This document shows positions 115-28,914 of a DNA stretch of 33,689 nucleotides, one piece after another; position 1 is the first letter of the stretch; each line of letters begins with the position of its first letter. Made by a program: the position numbers and the translations under genes. Source of the stretch: a virus; IMG/VR virus record IMGVR_UViG_3300042305_001667, positions 1-33,689 of that record. The stretch is one strand, 5' to 3'. The notes beneath the pieces were generated by a model. The model was not told the origin of the DNA and made no database searches. It saw nothing but the letters and a program-made list of their open reading frames with translations.

Positions 115-122
115 TAAAAGAA

Positions 123-153
123 AAACGCCGCCAAGGAAACTTGAGCAGCGTTT
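123..153. terminator. Hairpin terminator between convergent genes
   Basis: The arms AAACGCCGC (123-131) and GCAGCGTTT (145-153) pair with one C/A mismatch around a 13-nt loop. A-rich sequence on the left and T-rich on the right could let it work in both directions. Positions 124-160 are identical to 2381-2417 except at one base, in the stem. Confidence 0.65.
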
Positions 154-178
154 AACTTATTACTAAATAATGCTGAAA

Positions 179-589
179 TCAGCGTGAGCCACGAGCGCCA
201 CGAGGATCAACATATTCTCCTGTATCATAATCGTAATATCTTTCCCCAGCTTCTTTACGGCGTCTTTCATTTTCACGTCCCATAGCTTCGTTTTCCTTCG
301 TGCCTGGGGTCATCATGCGGTCGTGTTTTGCTGCATGTCTTTTTGCTCTACGTGCAGCGGATCTCCAATGCTTTTCTGAAGCAAGTGCTTTAGCGGCACC
401 TTCTTCATCACCTGCGTCGGAAAGCTTTTCGGCTAATGCTGCATAATCATCTGCGATGCTATCAAGTTGAGATCCTGGCTTGAAACCTCCAGGTGTGCCG
501 CCTCCAAGCATAACTTCAGCATCAAATGCTGAAACTTCTTCTACTTGTTCACGGATAAGTTGCTTTAGTTGTCCTAATGTAATCTTCAT
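179..589 (-). CDS. Small tagged protein A (capsid-targeting-like N-terminus, basic body)
   Basis: This 136-residue protein has no recognisable enzymatic domain. Residues 1-18 are MKITLGQLKQLIREQVEE, an amphipathic helix nearly identical to the N-termini encoded at 2711, 5008 and 5603 (all - strand). The rest has a Gly/Pro linker, an Ala-rich acidic helix (about 42-70), and an Arg/Lys/His-rich stretch (about 72-120) with a Tyr/Asp/Arg tail, as in a DNA-associated internal head protein. The start is supported by AAAGGAA upstream. A 58-bp block upstream is shared with the gene at 2451-2711, and the downstream terminator is shared too. In T4, short N-terminal sequences target internal proteins to the prohead and are cut by gp21 after [L/I]-x-E; I-R-E at 12-14 fits. 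Packaging is inference. Confidence 0.75.
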   Translation of the reverse strand: MKITLGQLKQLIREQVEEVSAFDAEVMLGGGTPGGFKPGSQLDSIADDYAALAEKLSDAGDEEGAAKALASEKHWRSAARRAKRHAAKHDRMMTPGTKENEAMGRENERRRKEAGERYYDYDTGEYVDPRGARGSR

Positions 590-627
590 AAAATAATATT
601 CCTTTCTCTTCTTTGAAGAGTTTTGTT

Positions 628-685
628 TTCTTTAAATATGATATAACCTTTAAATCTTCTTTTTTTTTCATCTCTATGCAGTTTA
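628..685 (-). promoter_or_regulatory. 58-bp conserved upstream block, copy A
   Basis: This block aligns without gaps to 2729-2786, and both lie upstream of - strand tag genes. On the - strand it contains AGAGATG, a run of nine A, GAA, and two ATTTAA boxes with an 18-bp period, the second inside ATATTTAAAGAA. Substitutions between the copies are not concentrated at third codon positions, so it looks like a promoter or leader, not coding DNA. The function is inferred. The rest of 590-859 holds no gene I can support. Confidence 0.5.
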
Positions 686-859
686 AAGTTATGATAGATT
701 GATGTAGGTTAGAAGACATAGAGAGAGACAAAAACGGTATTCTGATGTATATTTAACATACAGAGGTTCCTTATAAGCTTTTTTTCCAATGGTTGGATTT
801 TATGGCTTATATCTTTCCTCTGTATCATTAAAGTCCCATTGGGCAACATAGGTGAATAA

Positions 860-1519
860 ATGGCTAAAAGAAAGTTAAGCGTTAATGACGCTTATTTTGA
901 AAGCATTGATACACCTCAAAAAGCTTATTGGTTGGGCTTCATTGCTGCTGATGGTTGTGTCTCATCAACAAAAAACGCTATAGTAATAGCCTTACAACAA
1001 CAAGACAAATGTTTGCTTGAGCAGTTTAAACAAGATATTTGTTTTAGCGGCGAAGTAAAAGATTATAATAACAAATATAACGTTTCAAAAATCTATATTA
1101 CATCTAAAAAGATGAAAGAAGATTTAAGCAAATGGGGTATTGTTCCACGAAAAACTAATATACTAACTTGGCCAGACATAAATCAAAACTTCTATCCAGA
1201 TTTTATTAGAGGATATTTTGATGGTGATGGCTCATGGTCTGTCAGAGTTCGTGGAAACTGTAAAGATTGTATATTTCAGATTGTCTCCGGCGCAGAAACC
1301 TTTTTAAAACATATTGAAACTGTGTTAAGGTTAGAATGTGGATTTGAAGAACGAAACCTGTGCAAGATGACTAACACAAACTGTTACGAGTTGAAATATA
1401 GCGGAAATGGTAAAGCAATGAAGCTTTATGATTTTCTTTATAGACCCAACTCTTTTTACCTTGAACGCAAGTTCAATAAGGTCACTAACATAATAGAAAA
1501 TAAAAGGAAAGAAAAATGA
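860..1519 (+). CDS. LAGLIDADG-type homing endonuclease
   Basis: This 219-residue protein has two LAGLIDADG helices: YWLGFIAADG at 23-32 and FIRGYFDGDGS at 115-125. Each ends in the acidic residue that coordinates the catalytic metal, so one chain can form a complete active site. Such enzymes cut an allele lacking the element and spread their own gene by repair. There is no surrounding gene to splice, so it is free-standing. It sits between a - strand tag gene and the SSB gene, and its TGA overlaps the SSB ATG (ATGA, 1516-1519). It is richer in AT than the SSB gene, consistent with separate acquisition. A group I intron was considered, but no split gene is visible. Confidence 0.9.
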   Translation: MAKRKLSVNDAYFESIDTPQKAYWLGFIAADGCVSSTKNAIVIALQQQDKCLLEQFKQDICFSGEVKDYNNKYNVSKIYITSKKMKEDLSKWGIVPRKTNILTWPDINQNFYPDFIRGYFDGDGSWSVRVRGNCKDCIFQIVSGAETFLKHIETVLRLECGFEERNLCKMTNTNCYELKYSGNGKAMKLYDFLYRPNSFYLERKFNKVTNIIENKRKEK

Positions 1520-2337
1520 CATATTCATTAGACGCCATTAAGGCAAAAATCAATCAACTATCTGGTAATCGTGCCGCAGCGGGTGGAAAGACCGCAGAAA
1601 AGACGAAAGTAAACTGGTGGAAGCCGCAGCTTGGTCAGCATGACATTCGCTTCCTCCCCTATCAAGATCGTAATGGTCAGCCTTTCCATGAGGTAAGCTA
1701 TTATGATAGTCGCCTTCTATCAGAACGCCGGTTTGTAGCCGGTTGTCAGTTTGAAGGGACCACCGATCCTGTCTTTAATCTCCTAACCGAGCTAAAGAAG
1801 GATAAGTCCAAGGAAGCTTGGACGCTATGGCGTAATCTCCAGCCAAAGGAACGCTACTATGCCCCAATCATCGTTCGTGGTGAAGAGGATAAGGGCGTTC
1901 AACTCTGGGAGCTAAATGGAAAGCTTGTAAAGGATATTTACAGCGTTCTTGCTCACCCCGACTATAAGGATGAAAACCTTATGGATCCAGAGACTGGTTA
2001 TGATTTCACCGTAACCGTATCTCCAACTGATAAGACCTTTGCTGGTAATCCAGTTAAGGATATCAAGCTTCAACCACGCCGTAAGCCCTCACCACTCGCC
2101 AAGAGTTCAGAGGCAGCAGATAAGATTGTTGCTGGCATTCCAAACCTTGAGGCATACTTCAAGGCGCAGGTAAAGAGTGAGGACGAGCTTAATGCTATGC
2201 TTCAAAACTTCCTTGCTGGTAATGGTTCCTCCTCCGAGGAGACTGAAGAGGTTGAAGAGGTCAAGGATAAGACCGTTTCAGAGGCAAAGGTAAAGAAGGC
2301 AAAGAAATCGATCGATGATGCGTTCGGTGATTTGTGA
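1516..2337 (+). CDS. Single-stranded DNA-binding protein, T4 gp32-like
   Basis: This 273-residue protein binds ssDNA at the fork and coordinates recombinase and helicase loading (T4 gp32 is 301 residues). The N-terminal region (1-35) is basic and Ala/Gly-rich. The central part carries the aromatic pattern of the gp32 OB-fold: NWWKPQLGQHDIRFLPY at about 33-49, then YY, RYYAPIIVRGEE and GVQLWELNGKLV. The C-terminus has a Ser/Glu-rich linker (about 237-250) and ends in DDAFGDL, the acidic tail that typically recruits partners. The zinc-binding His/Cys set of T4 gp32 is not obvious. The start is fixed by AAAGGAAAG upstream and the ATGA overlap. C-ending codons suggest high expression. Confidence 0.85.
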   Translation: MTYSLDAIKAKINQLSGNRAAAGGKTAEKTKVNWWKPQLGQHDIRFLPYQDRNGQPFHEVSYYDSRLLSERRFVAGCQFEGTTDPVFNLLTELKKDKSKEAWTLWRNLQPKERYYAPIIVRGEEDKGVQLWELNGKLVKDIYSVLAHPDYKDENLMDPETGYDFTVTVSPTDKTFAGNPVKDIKLQPRRKPSPLAKSSEAADKIVAGIPNLEAYFKAQVKSEDELNAMLQNFLAGNGSSSEETEEVEEVKDKTVSEAKVKKAKKSIDDAFGDL

Positions 2338-2380
2338 CGGATTAAGCATCCCCCTGACAGTTTGAGATAAACAAAAGAAG

Positions 2381-2409
2381 AACGCCGCCAAGGAAACTTG
2401 AGCGGCGTT
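2381..2409. terminator. Perfect-stem terminator between SSB and tag gene B
   Basis: AACGCCGC (2381-2388) pairs perfectly with GCGGCGTT (2402-2409), followed by TTAACTTAT. It lies between convergent genes, so it probably serves both. The 37-bp unit 2381-2417 is repeated at 124-160. Confidence 0.7.
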
Positions 2410-2450
2410 TAACTTATATAACGGCGAGGTTGTTCAGAATACGTATTAAA

Positions 2451-2711
2451 TCAGAATAATCCTCTAGCGATATCTCTGATGTGCTGTTCTAAAGTGTCGC
2501 CATTTCGAAACACAATGACTAGTTCATCATCCTCGACAAAAACCCTTGTGACATTTTGTTTTGCACGACCCGCATCCGATGCATCAAACCAACCAGCATG
2601 ATCACCAAGCGCCAAAACAAACTTTTTTAAGTCGTTATGGCGACTGGCTTCCATTTCTTCTTCTACTTGTTCACGGATTAGTTGTTTAAGCTGCTTTACT
2701 GTAACTTTCAT
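2451..2711 (-). CDS. Small tagged protein B
   Basis: This 86-residue protein starts with MKVTVKQLKQLIREQVEE, the shared N-terminal helix, followed by a Glu-rich continuation. The body (about 25-86) is a small alpha/beta sequence ending in strands such as RVFVEDDELVIVF and a short helix. I recognise no family. An AGAGG site lies 8 nt upstream of the ATG. The 58-bp upstream block and the terminator are near copies of those of the gene at 179-589, while the bodies are unrelated. It lies between SSB and the recombinase gene but points the other way. A packaged or injected role is inferred only from the tag. Confidence 0.75.
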   Translation of the reverse strand: MKVTVKQLKQLIREQVEEEMEASRHNDLKKFVLALGDHAGWFDASDAGRAKQNVTRVFVEDDELVIVFRNGDTLEQHIRDIARGLF

Positions 2712-2728
2712 AAGATAACCTCTTTATC

Positions 2729-2786
2729 TTCTTTAAATATTGTAATCCCATTAAATGTTCTTTTTTTTTCATCTCTTTACAGTTTA
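2729..2786 (-). promoter_or_regulatory. 58-bp conserved upstream block, copy B
   Basis: This is the second copy of the block at 628-685, with the same run of nine A (- strand), both ATTTAA boxes and the same spacing. The ATATTTAA box lies 22 nt from the start of gene B. It is a candidate late promoter or leader. Confidence 0.5.
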
Positions 2787-2811
2787 CGTTTAGATACGGT
2801 TAGTATATGAT
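2783..2811 (+). promoter_or_regulatory. Candidate sigma70 promoter for the recombinase gene
   Basis: TTTACG (2783-2788) and TATGAT (2806-2811) are separated by 17 bp, 20 nt upstream of the recombinase ATG, which has GAAGGAA as ribosome site. The -35 end touches the divergent 58-bp block. Confidence 0.35.
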
Positions 2812-2831
2812 GATCTGAAAGAAGGAAACAC

Positions 2832-4058
2832 ATGGCAAAACCAACTACAAAAAAATCAGGAGATACGCAGCAAACAGTTCAAGATACAGTAATGGATGAC
2901 TTTTCATCCGATCTTATCAAAGCAATCAATAAAGAACACAATGATAAGATCGCTTTCAATCTTGGTGTAGATGATGCACCAACCCATGTTCATCGCTGGA
3001 TTTCTACAGGCTCACGACAACTAGATTATATTATCGGAAATCGTCGTGGTGGTGGAATGCCAGAAGGACGTATTGTAGAAATACAAGGTCCACCCGGTAT
3101 CGGTAAATCAACCCTAATGGCTCAAATAGCACGTTCTACCCAAAGAATGGGTGGCATTGCGGTCTATATCGATACCGAGAACGCAACAAATCCAGATACC
3201 CTTGCTAATATGGGTGTTGATGTGGCAAGAAGATTTGTTTTCGTTCAGTCCCCATGCACAGAGGAAATACTCTCCGTAATAGAGAGCACTATCCTTAAAG
3301 CCCGCACTATGACCAAAGACGTTCCTGTTACCGTCATTTGGGATAGCGTCTCTCAATCATCCCCAAAGGCTGAATTGGAAGGCGACTATGATCAGAACAC
3401 AATCGGTCTACAAGCCCGTGTTCTATCCAAGGGCATGAGAAAGATTGCTAACGTTATCGGTGGTCAGAAGGTTCTATTGGTTCTTGTAAGCCAACAGAGA
3501 CAGAAGATCGGCGTAATGTTCGGTGATCCAACTACAACATCTGGTGGTATGGCAATACCATATTCTTCATCGGTTCGTATCCGTCTTGATGGTGGATCGG
3601 CTATTAAGGATAAAGATGAAAACGTAATAGGTATTAACGTAACAGCTAAAACAATCAAGAACAAAGTAGCCAAGCCATTCCGTAAGGTTGGTTTCCAGAT
3701 TATGTTTGGAAAGGGTATCTTTGAGAATGATGAAATCTTTGATCTTCTTCGGGAGTATTGCAAGAATTCAAAGGCTGGAGTTACAGTAGGTAATAAGAGT
3801 GTTTCCGTAGCTGGAGATGGGGCTTGGAAGACCTTTACTGTGATGGATCTCAAAACTGGTGAGGTAGAAACTGAAGTTAAGTTCTATAAAAATGAATTTA
3901 GTCAGAAAGTTTTGAACAAACCAGACTATTTAGAATACGTTAATGCGCTGATGGACGCTGCACTTATTATCAGCAATAACGACAACACCGAAAGCCATGC
4001 AACTTATGAGGCAATAGCGGAAGGTGATGTAAAAACGGCTGACGAGTTAAGCGCCTGA
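2832..4058 (+). CDS. uvsX: UvsX/RecA-like recombinase
   Basis: This 408-residue ATPase would form filaments on ssDNA and catalyse strand exchange for recombination-dependent replication and repair. Visible motifs are Walker A GPPGIGKST (86-94), the catalytic glutamate region VYIDTENA (111-118), Walker B VTVIWDS (166-172) and a loop L2 region VSQQRQKIGVMFGDPTTTSGG (219-239). An N-terminal polar arm of about 40 residues and an Asp/Glu-rich C-terminus are typical. Length is close to T4 UvsX. It sits with SSB upstream and dUTPase, exonuclease and helicase downstream, matching a T4-like replication set. It is followed by a 13-bp inverted repeat. RecA or UvsX naming is a family-level call. Confidence 0.9.
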   Translation: MAKPTTKKSGDTQQTVQDTVMDDFSSDLIKAINKEHNDKIAFNLGVDDAPTHVHRWISTGSRQLDYIIGNRRGGGMPEGRIVEIQGPPGIGKSTLMAQIARSTQRMGGIAVYIDTENATNPDTLANMGVDVARRFVFVQSPCTEEILSVIESTILKARTMTKDVPVTVIWDSVSQSSPKAELEGDYDQNTIGLQARVLSKGMRKIANVIGGQKVLLVLVSQQRQKIGVMFGDPTTTSGGMAIPYSSSVRIRLDGGSAIKDKDENVIGINVTAKTIKNKVAKPFRKVGFQIMFGKGIFENDEIFDLLREYCKNSKAGVTVGNKSVSVAGDGAWKTFTVMDLKTGEVETEVKFYKNEFSQKVLNKPDYLEYVNALMDAALIISNNDNTESHATYEAIAEGDVKTADELSA

Positions 4059-4100
4059 CATTAACAACCCCAATAACACACAACACATAACACCCAAAGT

Positions 4101-4150
4101 AAAGGCGATAATCTAAACTAACTGAAAGGTTAACAAGGATTATCGCCTTT
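4101..4150 (+). terminator. 13-bp inverted repeat between recombinase and dUTPase genes
   Basis: AAAGGCGATAATC (4101-4113) and GATTATCGCCTTT (4138-4150) pair perfectly around a 24-nt loop, which holds a smaller TAAC/GTTA pairing. The following ATCATTTTAA is only moderately T-rich and the dUTPase ribosome site (ACAGGAGAAAC) follows closely. It could be a leaky terminator or an mRNA-processing structure. Confidence 0.5.
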
Positions 4151-4173
4151 ATCATTTTAAACACAGGAGAAAC

Positions 4174-4746
4174 ATGAAATCACATAATCCAAATGATGCA
4201 ATTAGAATAGCAATAGAAGAACCAGTAGCACAAAATGCATATAAAACCGTAGACCGTAATTGGTTTGACCCTCAAATACCAAAGGCACCAAAAACTATCA
4301 ATATCAAATTTAAACTCATGAATAGTAATGCCAAGCTACCTCATGCAGTCCGAGATGGAGATATTGGCTTTGATGTTTATTGTGCGGAGAATATAAATGT
4401 TCCAGCTCACGGTTTAGCTAAAATATCAACCGGTATTCAATTAGCAGATATGCCAATAATGGACAATGATCGTAATCGTATCTTTATGAAGATAGAGGGA
4501 CGTAGTGGATTAGCCAGTAAGGGTATATTCCCTGTTGGTGGTATTATAGATCCAAACTATAGGGGTGAGATAGGCGTTACGCTTATTAACCATAGTGCTG
4601 CTGATGCGGTATTTAATGTTGGTGATAGAATAGCTCAGTTAGTAGTTTACAAGGTAGCTACTGCTGGTGAGGTAGTAATGGCTGAGACAAACAAAGTTAC
4701 TGAGACAAATCGTGGTTCTGCTGGATTTGGTTCATCGGGAAAGTGA
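4174..4746 (+). CDS. dut: dUTPase (deoxyuridine triphosphatase), trimeric type
   Basis: It hydrolyses dUTP to dUMP and pyrophosphate, keeping uracil out of DNA and feeding dTMP synthesis by the ThyX at 15502-16173. All five motifs are visible in the 190 residues: GDIGFDVY (62-69), GRSGLASKG (109-117), GGIIDPNYRGEIGV (122-135, with catalytic Asp126 and Tyr129), GDRIAQLVV (150-158) and RGSAGFGSSG (180-189). About 45 residues precede the usual domain start and match nothing I recognise. A good AGGAGAAAC site precedes the ATG. It ends just before a strong terminator. Confidence 0.93.
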   Translation: MKSHNPNDAIRIAIEEPVAQNAYKTVDRNWFDPQIPKAPKTINIKFKLMNSNAKLPHAVRDGDIGFDVYCAENINVPAHGLAKISTGIQLADMPIMDNDRNRIFMKIEGRSGLASKGIFPVGGIIDPNYRGEIGVTLINHSAADAVFNVGDRIAQLVVYKVATAGEVVMAETNKVTETNRGSAGFGSSGK

Positions 4747-4767
4747 AATCGGTTAGATAGAAAAGAG

Positions 4768-4802
4768 AAACGCCGCTCGGGATTGATTTCGGGGCGGCGT
4801 TT
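4768..4802. terminator. Hairpin terminator between dUTPase and tag gene C
   Basis: AAACGCCGC (4768-4776) pairs perfectly with GCGGCGTTT (4794-4802). The stem matches the terminators at 123-153 and 2381-2409 but the loop differs. It lies between convergent genes. Confidence 0.7.
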
Positions 4803-4825
4803 TCAATTATACCATTCAAATGGTT

Positions 4826-5008
4826 TCAGAGCTTTAAATTCTTCTTTGCCCATTCTTTTGCAAGTGGGTCGGCAGTATTTAATGTTTTTACAGCGGCTTG
4901 AACTTCTTCAGATGCTAAAGGCATATATACACTTTGATCATCTTCTTTCATTGCCATTTCAACTTGTTCACGAATAATTTGCTTTAGTTGTCTATATGTA
5001 ATCTTCAT
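4826..5008 (-). CDS. Small tagged protein C (60 residues)
   Basis: The N-terminus MKITYRQLKQIIREQVEMAM matches the shared tag. The remaining 40 residues are mostly polar and helical, and no family is recognised. More than a quarter of the protein is tag, so after cleavage at I-R-E only about 45 residues would remain. It is second in a - strand pair, 13 nt after the gene at 5022-5603, with GGGATAAA upstream of the ATG. It probably shares that gene's promoter. Confidence 0.65.
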   Translation of the reverse strand: MKITYRQLKQIIREQVEMAMKEDDQSVYMPLASEEVQAAVKTLNTADPLAKEWAKKNLKL

Positions 5009-5021
5009 ATTATTTATCCCT

Positions 5022-5603
5022 TCAGCGACGATTTTTCAATTGGCGTCTTAACTCTTCTTTTACCATTTGTTGAATTTCTTCTTCAAGTCCCATAAAGCCT
5101 AAACCGAATAATCCTGGCTTCCAACCTTTTTTAGTTACCATTTTTACAACTGCGTCGGCTCTTTTGTTTCCGAAATTGGGAATTTTGACTTTGTTTAACG
5201 CCTGATAGCACGCCGCCATTACCTCATCGTCCCTCGAACGGATCAGCTCAATAATGTAGCGCCCGACCTTCGGATCTTTATGTGCGTCTTTTTTATTTAA
5301 ATACTCTATAATATCATTTGCAAGTTCTGTTCCTTCTTTTTGAATTTTTTGTTCACGAGCATTTTCTCTACTCCTGTCCGCCGACCTCTCGGCGGACGAG
5401 GCGGCTCGGGTAAGCCGGTCTTGTTCCAAATTTCTCGTTCCTCTTCTCTCAAGCTCGGCTCTAATATTTTCTTTGTCTTCTCTCGGAATGTTATATCCAA
5501 GACTATTTTCAAGGTCTGAGGCAGTATACGTCGTTATATCTTTACCATTATACAATACTTGTTCACGGATAAGCTGTTTAAGTTGTCTTACTGTAATTTT
5601 CAT
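5022..5603 (-). CDS. Tagged protein D (193 residues)
   Basis: The protein begins MKITVRQLKQLIREQV, the shared tag, then a different body. About 30-90 is Arg/Glu-rich and probably coiled (Ser-Ala-Glu-Arg repeats around 68-82). About 95-165 is a helical domain with alternating charged and hydrophobic residues. The tail (about 175-193) ends in a second Glu/Lys-rich helix. I recognise no enzyme. GAGGAG lies upstream of the ATG and an ATATTTAA box (5629-5636 on the - strand) 26 nt upstream. It is divergent from the exonuclease gene at 5697. It may be an internal head or core protein, by tag only. Confidence 0.7.
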   Translation of the reverse strand: MKITVRQLKQLIREQVLYNGKDITTYTASDLENSLGYNIPREDKENIRAELERRGTRNLEQDRLTRAASSAERSADRSRENAREQKIQKEGTELANDIIEYLNKKDAHKDPKVGRYIIELIRSRDDEVMAACYQALNKVKIPNFGNKRADAVVKMVTKKGWKPGLFGLGFMGLEEEIQQMVKEELRRQLKNRR

Positions 5604-5696
5604 ATATTAATCTCCTCAAAAGATAAAGTTAAATATATTTGAAGAATTGAAATCTAACCGGTATATCAATTAAATTCGTTGGTATATGTTAAGTCT

Positions 5697-6707
5697 ATGT
5701 CCCAACCAACCCAAGAAAGACCGATACTAATCATTGATGCATTCAATAATTTTATTCGGCATTTCCTGGTCAATCAAGAAATTAATCTCCGTAGTCAGCC
5801 GGTAGGAGGAGTGGTTGGGTTCTTGAAATCGGTTGACTACCTTGTTGGAACCTTCTGCCCATCCCGTGTATACGTTGTCTGGGAAAACGGTGGTCCGTCT
5901 CAAAGGCGCAGACACATTTCCCCCGAATACAAGGCGAATAGAGCCAAGATGAAGGAAGTGAAGAAAATCCAACAAGGAAAGGAGAGCATTCGGGATGTTT
6001 TAGCATTAGATGATCAGACAAGGGTTCAACAGATCACAATGCTAACAGCTCTACTTAAGAGCACTCCCGTATGCCAGATTTACGTGCAAGATACAGAATG
6101 TGATGATATCATCGCTTATCTTGCTCAAGATAAACTTCATAACTCAACCGCTAAAAGAATTATCGTTTCTAACGATAAAGACTTCTACCAATTACTTCAT
6201 AATCCACTTATAGAAATATATGATCCTGCCAGCCGTAAGATTATAGATGGAAATGAAGTTATTAATAAGTTTGGTATTTCTGCCAGGAATTTTTGTTTGG
6301 CAAAAACGATAGCTGGTGATGATAGCGATAACGTAGCTGGGGTGCCAGGAGCAGGGTTCAAGACGGTAGCTAAACGATTTCCTAAAATGGCTTCTATAGA
6401 TGAAGACCTGGATATAGCTACGGTCATAACAGAAGCCAAGGCAGCGAATATAGGAAAGAAGAAACCTATTGCTGTTTATAACGATATTGTAGAATGTGAA
6501 CAGCTAATAAGACGTAATTGGGACTTAATGTATTTGAACAGTAGCAATTTAAGTGCGAGTCAGATTAGCAAGATTAACTACATTGTGGATAACCATGAAC
6601 CAAGAATGGATAAGTTGGGGTTAATCAGAACAATCATGGAATGTGGTATAAATGCCACGTTTGATTATGATCGTTTTTGCTCCCAAATGCGCAATTTTGT
6701 GCGATAA
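5697..6707 (+). CDS. 5'-3' exonuclease, T4 RNase H/FEN type
   Basis: This nuclease family removes RNA primers and 5' flaps during lagging-strand synthesis. Acidic metal-binding residues appear in order: Asp14 (LIIDAFNNF), Asp132/Glu134/Asp136-137 (DTECDDIIAYL), Asp160/Asp162 (SNDKDFYQLL) and Asp208-211 (AGDDSDNVAGVPGAG). The last leads into the helix-3-turn-helix DNA-binding segment (about 212-225). I chose ATG 5697; the frame extends to a TTG at 5679, but neither has a clear ribosome site and the conserved fold begins soon after the ATG. The protein is 336 residues from ATG. It is divergent from tagged gene D and precedes the helicase. Confidence 0.88.
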   Translation: MSQPTQERPILIIDAFNNFIRHFLVNQEINLRSQPVGGVVGFLKSVDYLVGTFCPSRVYVVWENGGPSQRRRHISPEYKANRAKMKEVKKIQQGKESIRDVLALDDQTRVQQITMLTALLKSTPVCQIYVQDTECDDIIAYLAQDKLHNSTAKRIIVSNDKDFYQLLHNPLIEIYDPASRKIIDGNEVINKFGISARNFCLAKTIAGDDSDNVAGVPGAGFKTVAKRFPKMASIDEDLDIATVITEAKAANIGKKKPIAVYNDIVECEQLIRRNWDLMYLNSSNLSASQISKINYIVDNHEPRMDKLGLIRTIMECGINATFDYDRFCSQMRNFVR

Positions 6708-11612: not shown

Positions 11613-12422
11613 TCAACGGAACTCGTAGGTATCTTGTCTTTCCTCAAAGAAGTTAATGAGGGCAGATAGAATACCTGCGAGTTGTTCTGTATCTGCGATA
11701 GCAGAATGCCAATGTTTTGTAGAAACTTGGAAAGCCGTGCCCAAATCTCCAAGACGATTAATAAAGAACTTTTTTGGTCTTAATACACGGAGGAGAGGTT
11801 CAGCGGCTGGATCTCCCTCTTTTTCCATTAGAGCAAGAAGAGGTTGTAGATAGTTCTTTGCAAGAGCTTTTGTATCTACAATTGGCATTGTTGGCATTTT
11901 AGGAAGTTTGTGGCGTTCTAATGCTTTACCAATCTGATACATATCAAATCTTGCATTATGAGCGACTAATATTGGATTACGATCAGCAAAACTGTTAATA
12001 AAGTCTACGAAGCCTTCCATCATTTCAGCTTCTTCCTGATAAGGAACAGTTTCTGTATGATAAGCAGTCATACCAAGTAGGTCTTCTACAGTCTTTTCAT
12101 CTGGATTTGTCCATTTACCACGAGCTTTAAGGTCTTTTTCTCTTTCTATTCTGGAAAGAGTAGCAGCGGTTAGTTTAGCCTTCATATTGAACTCACCAAG
12201 GCGTTCACCTGTATTGGTATCATAAGCTACACCGGCTATTTCTGTTATTTGAGCAAATGGTTTCTTTGGATCCAGAGTTGTAGTCTCTGTATCTATGAAG
12301 ATTAATGTTTTGTTTTTAATCTTATCTACAACTTGGTCAAGGGTTAGTAGGGTCTTTTCTATTTGACCTTCTTCCAAGGCTTCACGGAGGATAAGTTTTA
12401 TGTATGTTTTTAGTAAGTTCAT
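11613..12422 (-). CDS. DEDDh 3'-5' exonuclease with tag-like N-terminal helix
   Basis: This DnaQ-like exonuclease has 269 residues. Catalytic residues are Asp44/Glu46 (FIDTET), Asp160 in AHNARFD (154-160), and His239/Asp244 in HSAIADTEQ. About 36 residues precede the fold, starting MNLLKTYIKLILREALEEGQ. This resembles the tag helix and has two T4-type cleavage sequences, L-R-E before Ala and L-E-E before Gly. The other DEDDh exonuclease in the window (26721-27302) lacks this extension. No clear Shine-Dalgarno is seen. It is divergent from the metallopeptidase gene by 24 bp, which also carries a tag-like start. It could be a proofreading or nucleotide-recycling enzyme, or a packaged nuclease. 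Confidence 0.85.
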   Translation of the reverse strand: MNLLKTYIKLILREALEEGQIEKTLLTLDQVVDKIKNKTLIFIDTETTTLDPKKPFAQITEIAGVAYDTNTGERLGEFNMKAKLTAATLSRIEREKDLKARGKWTNPDEKTVEDLLGMTAYHTETVPYQEEAEMMEGFVDFINSFADRNPILVAHNARFDMYQIGKALERHKLPKMPTMPIVDTKALAKNYLQPLLALMEKEGDPAAEPLLRVLRPKKFFINRLGDLGTAFQVSTKHWHSAIADTEQLAGILSALINFFEERQDTYEFR

Positions 12423-12446: not shown

Positions 12447-13394
12447 ATGAACGAACAACTTAAAAAACTTCTTGAATACCTTTTGGAAGAGGAATTGGAA
12501 GAACAAGTGGCGATTAGCACGGGTGGAGGAGCTGTGGCTTCAAGTGGTGCTATAGCTGGTGGTAGTGCATCTTCTGCAATGGATCCTGCTAATTTTAGTC
12601 CCCCACCTAAAAACAAATTAAATGAGATTAATCTTGTATATAATGGAGCTGGGTTAAGTTTTTCTGATATATCAAATAATAATATGGATGCTTCGCAAGA
12701 TCAGGGAGATTTAACCGGTGAAAATGATGATACTAAAAATCCATCAAAAAACAGAGTAAAGAAAAGTCTAAAAAGAAAATTTAATTATCGAAAAAGCGAT
12801 AGAGGATATAACCCTGTAGAAGATACTATGTGGAACTATGGGGATAAGCCAATCTATCGTGATGGTAAAGCAGGGACACTTCCAGCAAATAAAGTAAAAT
12901 ATATTGCTTTAGAAGAAGTAGTAAGTTTGGACAAGACTCCAAAGAAAGTAAAAATATATCAAGATAAAGGTCATCCAGTTAGTCAGCAATCACTAAACGT
13001 TCTTATTGATTTCCTTAAATTTTGTAACAGCATTCTAAAGCTTGAAAACATGCCAGATATATATCTTCACATGATAAAGAAGCCAGAAATGACAACTGGC
13101 ATGTATAATCGTGGCGATCACATAATCCATGTTTTGTTTGGCAAACGGCTTTTAGTGGATGTTATGAGAACAATTGCTCATGAACTTACCCATGCCCGTC
13201 AAGAGGAGACAGGATTACTTGATAAGCATTTAGCAAATGTTGATCCTATGAATGAGATGGGTGACATAGACACGATATATGAGAATGAAGCTTATACTCT
13301 TGCAGGCAATATTGTAAAGATATTTTGCCGTAAATATAAGCGTATTCCTAAAGATGAATTGTATGAACTTAATGAAAACAAGCGGTGGTTATGA
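12447..13394 (+). CDS. HExxH zinc metallopeptidase with tag-like N-terminal helix
   Basis: This 315-residue protein has three parts. Residues 1-20 (MNEQLKKLLEYLLEEELEEQ) form an amphipathic helix like the tag, with L-E-E sites. Residues about 22-110 are low complexity: Gly/Ser/Ala, then Asn/Asp, then Lys/Arg. Residues about 150-315 are the peptidase: HELTH (245-249) gives two zinc His and the catalytic Glu246, and ENEA (279-282) offers Glu281 as a third ligand. The specific peptidase family is not identified. The target is unknown; if packaged, it could act in the head or be injected. Its TGA overlaps the PAP2 gene start (ATGA 13391-13394), so the two are translationally coupled. Confidence 0.8.
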   Translation: MNEQLKKLLEYLLEEELEEQVAISTGGGAVASSGAIAGGSASSAMDPANFSPPPKNKLNEINLVYNGAGLSFSDISNNNMDASQDQGDLTGENDDTKNPSKNRVKKSLKRKFNYRKSDRGYNPVEDTMWNYGDKPIYRDGKAGTLPANKVKYIALEEVVSLDKTPKKVKIYQDKGHPVSQQSLNVLIDFLKFCNSILKLENMPDIYLHMIKKPEMTTGMYNRGDHIIHVLFGKRLLVDVMRTIAHELTHARQEETGLLDKHLANVDPMNEMGDIDTIYENEAYTLAGNIVKIFCRKYKRIPKDELYELNENKRWL

Positions 13395-26073: not shown

Positions 26074-26724
26074 TTAGCGAACCGGCTTACCGTTAGGCAA
26101 ACGGAATTCAGTCTCAATCTTGAAATCCACGTGGAAGCTTGGAATACCAATGTGGTTAACTACGTTGTGCTTTATAGCTTCCTCTGAATCAAGGAACCAA
26201 TCGGCGTGCTTCTTTTGGTGAACCAACTCAAGGAAGTAATCTTCTTTGTGTCCACAGTTTTTTGCCATCATCTTGAAGATACGTTCATTCAAACGATCCG
26301 TTTCTACAGCATTAGCCTTAACTTCTTCGTTCTTGCCCCAATTCATGCTGGATACTTCATGGATCATAACAGTAGCCGATGGAGCACAGAAACGATAACC
26401 TTCTGCACCACAGGTAAGAAGAACAGCGCCACATGACATAGCCTTACCTTCTACAATGGTTGCGACCTTTACCTTGCAAGCATTAATCATATCAACCATA
26501 GCGAGCAGAGAATATACTTCACCACCATAGCTGTCAATGATGATTGGCAAGATTTCCTGTTTTGCCTTGATGCAATGATCTTCGGCGGCTTCCAGCTCCT
26601 CACAGAATTTATTTGCGGTATTTTCTGTAAAGGCACCGGAGAACTTGATATAGATTGGCATATAACATGCCGACTCAATATCCTTAACTCTTACTCTTTC
26701 ATCTACGTTAACTGTATATCTCAT
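26074..26724 (-). CDS. ClpP-like serine protease (S14 fold)
   Basis: Catalytic residues fit Ser97 (GKAMSCGA), His122 (VMIHEVSS) and Asp175 (ADWFLDSEEA), in ClpP spacing and context. The substrate-lining segment IIIDSYGGEVYSLLAMVDMI (61-80) also fits. The 216-residue length is similar to ClpP. Some phages use ClpP-fold enzymes as prohead proteases, so it could process tagged proteins; degradation of host proteins with host ClpX/A is the other option. It overlaps the DEDDh exonuclease gene by ATGA (26721-26724). No scaffold or capsid gene lies adjacent, which weakens the prohead assignment. Confidence 0.82.
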   Translation of the reverse strand: MRYTVNVDERVRVKDIESACYMPIYIKFSGAFTENTANKFCEELEAAEDHCIKAKQEILPIIIDSYGGEVYSLLAMVDMINACKVKVATIVEGKAMSCGAVLLTCGAEGYRFCAPSATVMIHEVSSMNWGKNEEVKANAVETDRLNERIFKMMAKNCGHKEDYFLELVHQKKHADWFLDSEEAIKHNVVNHIGIPSFHVDFKIETEFRLPNGKPVR

Positions 26725-27396: not shown

Positions 27397-28914
27397 ATGA
27401 CCAATAAAAAAACAAATCTCAAAAAGCTTCTTGAATATACCGGTCCTAACTTTTATGGTAATCCATCATTTGGAGGCACCGGCAACTTTGGCATGGGGGG
27501 ATATAAACAATTAGCTCATTTTGGACTTAATTCAGCTACAGAAGCTATAGCAGATCAAGAACAAGAAGAACTTGAACAAAACATAGAAGATCAAGAGTGG
27601 ATTAACAACAAATACCGTAGAGGTTTTGGATTTAATTCTGATGAAGATCCTGTTCCGCATTGGAATGGTAGAAATGGTGCTGTAGAAACTGTTGCAGAAA
27701 GTGCTCCATATGACAACTCCGTTTCTCGTATGAGAGACTTACCTGGATTTCCAGCACCTAATACGTTAGTTGAGCCAAAACAGTTTACTCCAATGAATGC
27801 CGGCGCCGATTATGAAAATCCTATAGATGGACGCAAGGTAGAATATTTAGGTCCAACACTCAACGGTGTTCCTATGGATGATATGACAGGAAATTCTGCT
27901 GCTATGTCTTTACAATTAGATGAAAAAGATGAATTGATAGGTCGTCGTGTAAAGAAGCTTAAAAAACCTATTACAAAAAAATTAGATAAGCTTATTGGAC
28001 CAGATCCAGATTTATCATCTGATACGGAGCATGAAAGTGATGCCCGTGATCTAATACTTTATGATTACATTAAAGATTTGGTAAGAGAAACGATACAAGA
28101 ATTGTTAGGCGCCCCAAAAGCTACGACACCAGACCGTTTAGGTTGGAATAATACAAGAACAAATTCATTAGCCGCATGGAGAAATCATAGGGATCCAAGC
28201 AAAGAACCGCCAGAAACATGGCGCCCACAGTTTGGAGAGAATGAGGAACAAAATCCTCCAATGGTGTTCGAACCTCCACAAAGAAGTCCATTAGGCGGAT
28301 TTGGTTCTATTGGTTGGCCAAAACAGTTTGTTCCAGTCGATTATGAAGCTACTCATGGTGGAGATGAAAATTTTGGCGAAGATTTGTTAGGGGCAAGAAG
28401 ATTAAGACAATCTCCTACAGACGATGATCGTGTTGGAGTCAATGCAAGTATAAGAGAGGCATATATGGAAGAACTTAAAACATTATTAGAATACCTTTTA
28501 AACGAACAAGATGATAGTGGTGATAGTGATTTAGGTTCAGATTCTGGCGACTCTGACAGCGATGAAGGCGGTATGGATGAAGAATTTGCTTCTAAAGCTC
28601 AACGTCGTTTCTTTTTTGCAAAAGCAGCCGAAGGCGGCAAAGAAGGAGAAAAATGGAAACGTTTGGCTTCTGAGTTTGAAAGTGAAACTCCAAAGGGTGC
28701 AAAGCTTCCAGAACGTGTCGATGAAGCAATGCTTGAGGAAGGTATTGATGAAGGAGAAAATGCTCCTACCAATCCAAGTTTATGGAGTCAAGCAAAGTCT
28801 CAAGCCCGTAAAAAGTTTAAAGTATATCCATCTGCATATGCTAATGCCTGGGCATCTAAGTGGTATAAGAGCAAGGGTGGCGGCTGGCGTAAGAAGGGAA
28901 AGAAGAAAAAATGA
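27397..28914 (+). CDS. Multi-module probable virion protein with repeated tag-like helices
   Basis: Three helices like the shared tag occur in these 505 residues: LKKLLEY (8-14), LYDYIKDLVRETIQELL (221-237) and YMEELKTLLEYLLNEQ (356-371). Between them are Gly/Asn/Pro-rich segments. After the third comes an Asp/Ser stretch (372-390). A SKAQRRFFFAKA element (399-410) and YPSAYANAWASKWYKSKGG (477-495) follow, then a poly-Lys end. The YPSAYANAWA domain recurs in marine phage proteins and resembles DUF5872; its function is unknown to me. The helix spacing suggests separable modules. It overlaps the GIY-YIG gene by ATGA and probably belongs with the gene at 29594. Confidence 0.65.
   Translation: MTNKKTNLKKLLEYTGPNFYGNPSFGGTGNFGMGGYKQLAHFGLNSATEAIADQEQEELEQNIEDQEWINNKYRRGFGFNSDEDPVPHWNGRNGAVETVAESAPYDNSVSRMRDLPGFPAPNTLVEPKQFTPMNAGADYENPIDGRKVEYLGPTLNGVPMDDMTGNSAAMSLQLDEKDELIGRRVKKLKKPITKKLDKLIGPDPDLSSDTEHESDARDLILYDYIKDLVRETIQELLGAPKATTPDRLGWNNTRTNSLAAWRNHRDPSKEPPETWRPQFGENEEQNPPMVFEPPQRSPLGGFGSIGWPKQFVPVDYEATHGGDENFGEDLLGARRLRQSPTDDDRVGVNASIREAYMEELKTLLEYLLNEQDDSGDSDLGSDSGDSDSDEGGMDEEFASKAQRRFFFAKAAEGGKEGEKWKRLASEFESETPKGAKLPERVDEAMLEEGIDEGENAPTNPSLWSQAKSQARKKFKVYPSAYANAWASKWYKSKGGGWRKKGKKKK

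What the first reader, a model, noticed from the sequence alone, without database searches (positions are those of the whole stretch)
115..5640. Tag genes sit as reverse-strand cassettes between replication genes, with duplicated promoter and terminator modules
The order SSB(+), tag B(-), uvsX(+), dut(+), tags C and D(-), exonuclease(+) repeats one design: a convergent terminator, a - strand tag gene, and a divergent promoter region. Genes A and B share a 37-bp terminator unit (one mismatch) and a 58-bp upstream block, while their bodies differ. This suggests spreading of a promoter-tag-terminator frame with exchangeable cargo, like morons with a built-in packaging address.
Basis: partly seen in the sequence, partly recalled or inferred. 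Interest (0 to 1): 0.7.

Follow-up and report, generated by a model that had tools for sequence, protein, structure and literature searches.

The report
Swappable tagged genes between phage replication genes
In an uncultured T4-like phage, small genes that share one 18-residue front tag but otherwise differ sit in slots between the DNA-replication genes and are gained, lost and swapped between almost identical phages, probably so that different proteins can be loaded into the phage head and injected into the host.

Summary
SSB, tag B, uvsX, dut, tags D/C and exonuclease lie as described. Genes A and B share a 37-bp terminator hairpin (one mismatch) and a 58-bp upstream block (49/58; shuffles reach at most 35), while their bodies are unrelated.

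Relatives decide the interpretation. In 20 contigs, including the window, I found 41 tag genes at three slots (before SSB, SSB-uvsX, dut-exo), all on the reverse strand: 30 distinct proteins in 19 unrelated cargo clusters. Contigs whose replication genes are 98.3-100% identical differ in slot content (229 aa, 114+117 aa or nothing; 96, 151, 174 aa or nothing). Empty slots keep the terminator and the + strand promoter, so the moving piece is promoter box + tag gene, with crossovers in the terminator hairpin.

The tag is held by selection on the protein (pN/pS 0.22, against about 1.0 in the cargo), has an invariant I-x-E, and occurs in more distant relatives among head genes beside a T4 gp21-type protease. 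This works like T-even internal-protein loci (capsid-targeting sequence plus shuffled cargo). Packaging itself is inferred, not shown. I call it a new variant of a known kind.

The parts
124..160 (.). 37-bp terminator hairpin unit at the 3' end of tag gene A (slot S1)
   Evidence: exact pattern also in L082, L003, L083, L084
179..589 (-). tag gene A, 136 aa; tag = codons 1-18 (536-589)
628..685 (.). 58-bp upstream block of A, containing the promoter-like box (CATATTTAAAG on the - strand) and the start of the divergent + strand promoter region
860..1519 (+). LAGLIDADG endonuclease ORF at the border of slot S1
   Evidence: PF14528 E 4e-11, phrog_4645 E 1.6e-54; also in L002
1516..2337 (+). single-strand DNA binding protein (slot border)
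   Evidence: phrog_1192 E 3e-19
2381..2417 (.). 37-bp terminator hairpin unit (slot S2), kept at empty S2 slots of L006, L089 and L095
2418..2760 (-). approximate moving piece at slot S2, judged against empty slots in relatives
2451..2711 (-). tag gene B, 86 aa; tag = 2658-2711
2731..2741 (-). AATATTTAAAG box, 30 nt 5' of the tag B start
2729..2786 (.). 58-bp upstream block of B with the divergent promoter region of uvsX
2832..4058 (+). UvsX/RecA recombinase (slot border)
   Evidence: PF00154 E 1e-58
4174..4746 (+). dUTPase (slot border)
   Evidence: PF00692 E 8e-26
4768..4802 (.). terminator hairpin of slot S3 (same stem, different loop)
4809..5659 (-). approximate moving piece at slot S3; empty relatives join the hairpin tail (...TCAATT) directly to GGTATATCAATTAAA or a near copy
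4826..5008 (-). tag gene C, 60 aa (second gene, no promoter-like box)
5022..5603 (-). tag gene D, 193 aa; family members share tag and C-terminal tail, with a variable middle
5660..5697 (+). promoter-like region of the exonuclease gene, kept at empty S3 slots
5697..6707 (+). 5'-3' exonuclease (slot border; likely start ATG 5697 rather than TTG 5679)
   Evidence: PF02739 E 5e-24

Best explanation
The tag genes are transcriptionally independent, exchangeable cassettes in a T4-like phage. Each slot is a terminator hairpin followed by the promoter of the next replication gene. A cassette (AATATTTAAAG box, leader, 18-residue tag, cargo) sits inside it on the opposite strand. Cassettes are gained, lost, fused or swapped by recombination that uses the terminator stem on one side and the promoter/leader/tag region on the other. 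Shown: presence/absence and cargo exchange within a near-identical group, one cargo family at two slots, a crossover in the terminator loop, and selection on the tag at the protein level. Inferred: the tag acts as a capsid-targeting sequence like that of T4 internal proteins. It would bring the cargo into the prohead core, be cut off after a hydrophobic-x-E motif (I-R-E-14, or V-E-E-18) by a gp21-type protease, and the cargo would be injected with the DNA, where varied cargo would meet varied host defences. Also inferred: homing endonucleases at the slot borders help drive the exchange.
For: Exchange: 41 tag genes in 20 contigs, all 41 on the - strand, 30 distinct proteins, 19 cargo clusters. 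S2 carries tag genes in 8 of 14 contigs, S3 in 13 of 22, S1 in 9 of 10. Core DNA 99.4% identical over 5,043 nt, yet S2 has 229 aa (L005) or none (L006); 99.9% over 3,665 nt, yet S1 has none (L004) or 78 aa (L112). The same cargo family is at S2 in L003 and at S1 in L112 (67% over 60 aa). L005 and L006 are the same up to GAAGCGCCGCC, then the terminator loop differs. Cassette remnants: a broken terminator between two tag genes in L004, a tag frame with an internal stop in L118, and a longer ORF in L005 that starts as the L004 117-aa cargo (94% over 118 aa) and then resembles the 114-aa neighbour weakly (38% over 42 aa). Box: all 6 exact AATATTTAAAG sites in 261,172 bases lie upstream of tag genes; resampled sequence gave 0-3. 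Tag: M1 L8 K9 I12 E14 in 30 of 30; pN/pS 0.22 in codons 2-17 against 0.96-1.01 in codons 19-50. Packaging: T4 IPII and IPIII (read) have a tag ending in I-A-E, and residues 8 and 10 govern processing in IPIII (PMC9026906 passages). In G020, G021 and G022 tag genes lie between the major head protein gene and the next late gene; in G020 and G021 the head cluster contains a gp21-type protease. The gene next to that protease has a tag-like start in G003, G020 and G021 (scores 28-32; shuffles reach 25 or more in 2 of 18,045).
Against: There is no virion proteome. Neither the head protease nor Gp23 was found in any tested record of the close group; these are fragments. Conservation runs to E17/E18, past I-x-E-14, so the first cut site may be wrong. 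The tag does not align convincingly with T4 CTS beyond MK and I-x-E. No cargo has a recognised function, and the tag D model has no PDB match. The protease-side tag-like start is weak, and the three cases are homologues of each other. The slots lie among replication genes, unlike T4 ip genes. The box resembles no promoter class that I could test. Nine of 29 distinct upstream regions have no box at 9/11 or better.
Confidence: 0.66

Rival explanations
1. The cassettes are exchanged as described, but the tag is a docking helix for something other than the head: host RNA polymerase, the replisome, or a phage compartment. The proteins act where they are made, during replication.
For: The slots lie among replication genes; the tag looks like a short amphipathic helix (modelled as helix 5-19 for tag D, low confidence); no packaging data.
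Against: Invariant I-x-E; tag genes inside the head cluster of G020, G021 and G022; tag-like start on the gene beside the head protease.
Confidence: 0.2
2. The tag-coding DNA is kept only as a recombination anchor or by gene conversion; the peptide has no function of its own.
For: Leader and tag DNA are shared across slots with unrelated cargo.
Against: Within the tag, synonymous sites differ at 0.56 and non-synonymous at 0.12 over 435 pairs: the protein is held, the DNA is not.
Confidence: 0.04
3. Ordinary orphan accessory genes (morons) inherited mostly vertically with high loss; the shared tag is a relic of an old paralogue family, with no targeting role.
For: No cargo function known; one decayed copy (L118).
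Against: Different cargo at the same slot in 98-100% identical phages and one cargo family at two slots do not fit vertical descent; selection stops sharply at residue 18.
Confidence: 0.1

Closest known systems
T-even internal protein (IP) loci with capsid-targeting sequence (CTS); Repoila et al. 1994 is cited in PMC3012670 (passages), the paper itself is not held
   Same: Short conserved start on unrelated small proteins, hydrophobic-x-E at the tag end, cargo that varies between close relatives
   Different: Tag sequence is different and longer; slots lie among replication genes and on the opposite strand; packaging untested; host and virion unknown
PeSL mobile regulatory cassettes of T4-like phages (Arbiol 2010, Comeau 2014; titles seen as references, contents recalled, papers not held)
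   Same: A promoter and a stem-loop terminator sit together at module borders and mediate shuffling; an empty slot here looks like such a composite
   Different: The cargo here is one class (tagged genes) with its own box; the hairpin is a convergent terminator; promoter class unknown
P1 DarB N-terminal packaging signal (PMC9024508, abstract and passages)
   Same: An N-terminal stretch sends a protein into the head
   Different: One large protein, 30 residues, no cassette exchange described in the passages seen
Morons of temperate phages (recalled)
   Same: Gene with its own promoter and terminator, present or absent between the same neighbours
   Different: Here the genes share a protein tag and fixed slots

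Membership tests
T4-type internal proteins with CTS | short N-terminal sequence shared by otherwise unrelated proteins | tested here: met
   30 distinct proteins, 19 cargo clusters; conservation ends at residue 18
T4-type internal proteins with CTS | prohead-protease type motif, hydrophobic-x-E, near the tag end | tested here: met
   I12 and E14 in 30 of 30; T4 IPII/IPIII I-A-E. Cleavage itself not testable
T4-type internal proteins with CTS | sequence homology of the tag to T4 CTS | tested here: inconclusive
   by eye only MK at the start and I-x-E agree; no statistical comparison made
T4-type internal proteins with CTS | phage encodes a gp21-type prohead protease | tested here: inconclusive
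   PF03420 in 3 of 19 records and 4 of 7, including tag-bearing G003, G020 and G021; none of the tested contigs nearest the window covers head genes (no Gp23 either)
T4-type internal proteins with CTS | protein found in virions and injected | not testable with these tools
   no proteome
T4-type internal proteins with CTS | cargo exchange between close relatives at a fixed locus | tested here: met
PeSL mobile regulatory cassettes | composite stem-loop terminator plus promoter at module borders (definition from a reference title, and recall) | tested here: met
   empty S3: hairpin tail then GGTATATCAATTAAA or a near copy; empty S2 of L006, L089, L095 likewise; promoter activity itself untested
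PeSL mobile regulatory cassettes | promoter is an early promoter | not testable with these tools
   no transcript data; sigma-70 scan shows no excess
moron | autonomous gene present or absent between the same two neighbours | tested here: met
   S2 with a tag gene in 8 of 14 contigs, S3 in 13 of 22

The most novel reading that the evidence does not exclude
A plug-in delivery system: one short tag, recognised by a head-core protein that carries a related N-terminal helix beside the prohead protease, gives any gene dropped into one of several terminator-promoter slots access to the virion, and homing endonucleases at the slot borders keep the slots in flux, so that a phage species carries a shared, fast-changing library of injected effectors.
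Probability: 0.3. Interest if true: 0.78.

Novelty: new variant of a known kind. Interest (0 to 1): 0.56.

Why it matters
If the tag is a head address, each cassette can be recognised from sequence alone by 18 residues. That would turn many orphan phage genes in metagenomes into candidate injected proteins, a class in which T4 IPI (anti-restriction) and IPIII (needed on one E. coli strain; PMC9391042 passages) are the examples I saw. The near-identical contigs with different slots also give a natural series in which cassette gain, loss and crossover points can be read directly.

Tried and rejected
Cargo function: Pfam, PHROG and NCBIfam found nothing reliable for the tag proteins scanned. The tag D model (mean pLDDT 75, pTM 0.47) had no PDB match at E<=0.001.

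A 388-aa protein with a different tag-like start (L118 3811-4977; L004 2533-3699; L112 4000-5166) looks to me like an R-S-E ADP-ribosyltransferase (motif recalled, by eye). Neither Pfam nor PDB sequence search nor a profile of the three confirmed it, and its single-sequence model is useless (pLDDT 35). I make no claim.

A 26-aa stretch of tag B found nothing in 50,697 phage records at E<=10. The 58-bp block as a pattern found no contig in viral contigs.

Leader hairpin: present in many leaders but weak against shuffles, and absent in others; not claimed.

Gene-conversion-only view: rejected by pN/pS. RaK2 'conserved N-terminal motif' (PMC3622015 passages) is a tail-spike motif and unrelated.

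Rows dropped before counts: L084 and L092 (second copies of contigs counted as L086 and L112), and other overlapping loci of the same contigs. The two tag genes of L014 and the weaker or further tags of G001, G002, G003, G004, G012, G014, G016, G018 and G020-G022 are not in the 41. One row of alignment A1 was cut at the wrong place, so I remade it without that row as A2. Some counted contigs are the same population (window and L107; L112 and L093; L118, L025 and L115; L016 and L109), so k of n counts contigs, not independent events.
Full report
WHAT IS THERE. The window is a whole 33,689-base IMG/VR record, by its size a fragment of a larger phage. Its first 6.7 kb hold SSB, UvsX, dUTPase and a 5'-3' exonuclease on the + strand. 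Four reverse-strand genes begin with the same tag, close to MKITVKQLKQLIREQVEE. The hairpins fold with z-scores from -3.3 to -6.8.

RELATIVES. Scans of viral contigs with UvsX, SSB and the exonuclease gave 22 further contigs in the close group (listed); two more distant contigs (L099, L101) were added to the cargo count. I name three slots: S1 left of SSB, S2 between SSB and uvsX, S3 between dut and the exonuclease. In 20 contigs including the window there are 41 tag genes at these slots, all on the reverse strand: 30 distinct proteins in 19 clusters when residues 20 onward are compared at E<=1e-3. In the close group S2 holds tag genes in 8 of 14 contigs, S3 in 13 of 22, S1 in 9 of 10. The six S2 slots without a tag gene include one with a GIY-YIG endonuclease (L086). 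Some contigs are the same population, so these are contig counts.

EXCHANGE WITHIN A NEAR-IDENTICAL GROUP. Nine contigs have SSB/UvsX/Dut/Exo/DnaB DNA 98.3-100% identical to each other, over whatever they share. Their S3 holds nothing, 96, 151 or 174 aa; their S2 nothing, 229 or 114+117 aa; their S1 166, 78 or nothing. The sharpest pairs are L005 and L006 (99.4% over 5,043 nt; S2 229 aa or empty) and L004 and L112 (99.9% over 3,665 nt; S1 empty or 78 aa). One cargo family is at S2 in L003 and at S1 in L112 (67% over 60 aa). This contradicts vertical descent.

ANATOMY OF THE MOVE. Empty slots are not blank. At S3 the hairpin's tail runs straight into the exonuclease promoter region; at S2 (L006, L089, L095) it runs straight into the uvsX promoter region. 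So the terminator and the + strand promoter belong to the slot, and the cassette is what lies between: box, leader, tag, cargo. L002 and L108 have another kind of empty S2, with an unrelated hairpin. L005 and L006 are the same up to the terminator stem and then have different loops, which places a crossover in the hairpin. Of 16 hairpins of this kind found in seven contigs (261,172 bases), 13 are at S1-S3 by my reading of the positions, one of them (at the end of G018) assigned by sequence likeness; the other three lie left of S1 (the tag A hairpin, with its mismatch, is not among the 16). The exact box AATATTTAAAG occurs six times in the same bases, each time upstream of a tag gene; 20 resampled sets gave 0-3. 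Twenty of 29 distinct upstream regions match the box at 9/11 or better; second-in-line genes mostly do not.

Debris supports the model. L004 has a broken terminator between two tag genes. L118 has a tag frame with an internal stop. In L005 one 229-aa ORF starts as the 117-aa cargo of L004 (94% over 118 aa) and then weakly resembles its 114-aa neighbour (38% over 42 aa). The tag D family keeps the tag and a C-terminal tail with a variable middle. Endonuclease ORFs sit at the border of each slot: LAGLIDADG at S1 (window, L002), GIY-YIG/NUMOD3 at S2 (L086; similar ORF in L003), and an endonuclease VII/HNH-like protein at S3 (L111). That they drive the exchange is inference.

WHAT THE TAG IS. Over 435 pairs the tag (codons 2-17) has pS 0.56 and pN 0.12; codons 19-50 have pN/pS near 1. 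The peptide is selected, and the DNA is not merely copied. M1, L8, K9, I12 and E14 are in all 30; E17 is in 27 and E18 in 23; residue 19 is free. T4 IPII and IPIII start with ten residues ending I-A-E. In IPIII, residues 4 and 7 govern targeting and residues 8 and 10 processing, and the authors suggest that CTS let T4-like phages take varied proteins into heads (PMC9026906, passages). The T-even IPs are described as a highly diverse set with only the CTS conserved (PMC3012670, passages).

HEAD LINK. Peptidase_S77 (gp21 family) is in 3 of 19 records tested and in 4 of 7 others. Among tag-bearing records it is in G003 (weak tag), G020 and G021. In G020, G021 and G022 a tag gene lies between the major head protein gene and the next late gene (in G003 the protease and head protein, in G021 the portal, are named by PHROG; the rest I named by their likeness to these). 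The gene beside the protease in G003, G020 and G021 starts with a tag-like sequence scoring 27.6-32.2, while shuffled starts reach 25 in 2 of 18,045. These three are homologues, so this is one event seen three times. No tested contig nearest the window covers head genes (no PF07068 hit).

LIMITS. No virion, transcript or host data. No cargo function was recognised. Cut site and promoter class are open. The tag was not found in named phages (26-aa query). The print search found no description of this tag or these slots; key papers on T-even IP loci and PeSLs are not held, so their content is recalled or second-hand. The 'Far-T4' paper (PMC4360716, passages) describes uncultured T4 kin; I did not test membership.

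VERDICT. Observation confirmed. Exchange model supported and refined. Packaging likely but inferred. A new variant of the T-even IP/PeSL kind.

Noticed in passing
L016, L118, L025, L116, L095, L088, L070 (uvsX); L088, L116 (nrdA): uvsX is split by a 0.5-1.2 kb insert near codon 229-236 and nrdA near codon 263 in several relatives; the window's copies are uninterrupted. Intron or intein not determined.
   Followed up: no
L118:3811-4977, L004:2533-3699, L112:4000-5166: 388-aa protein with another tag-like start (LKxLLxYLxE), at S2 in one contig and left of S1 in others; looks ADP-ribosyltransferase-like by eye, unconfirmed.
   Followed up: partly
window 12447-13394 and 27397-28914: Two + strand proteins start with a similar LKKLLEY stretch, perhaps a second tag class (the second scores 17 against the tag).
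   Followed up: no
window 11613-12422 (-): DEDD-type exonuclease (RNase_T) with a marginally tag-like start (score 21).
   Followed up: no
window 26074-26724 (-): ClpP-family protease (PF00574 E 2e-29).
   Followed up: no
G021 172043-174716: Cluster of three tag genes in a 260-kb record, about 12 kb from the portal gene.
   Followed up: partly
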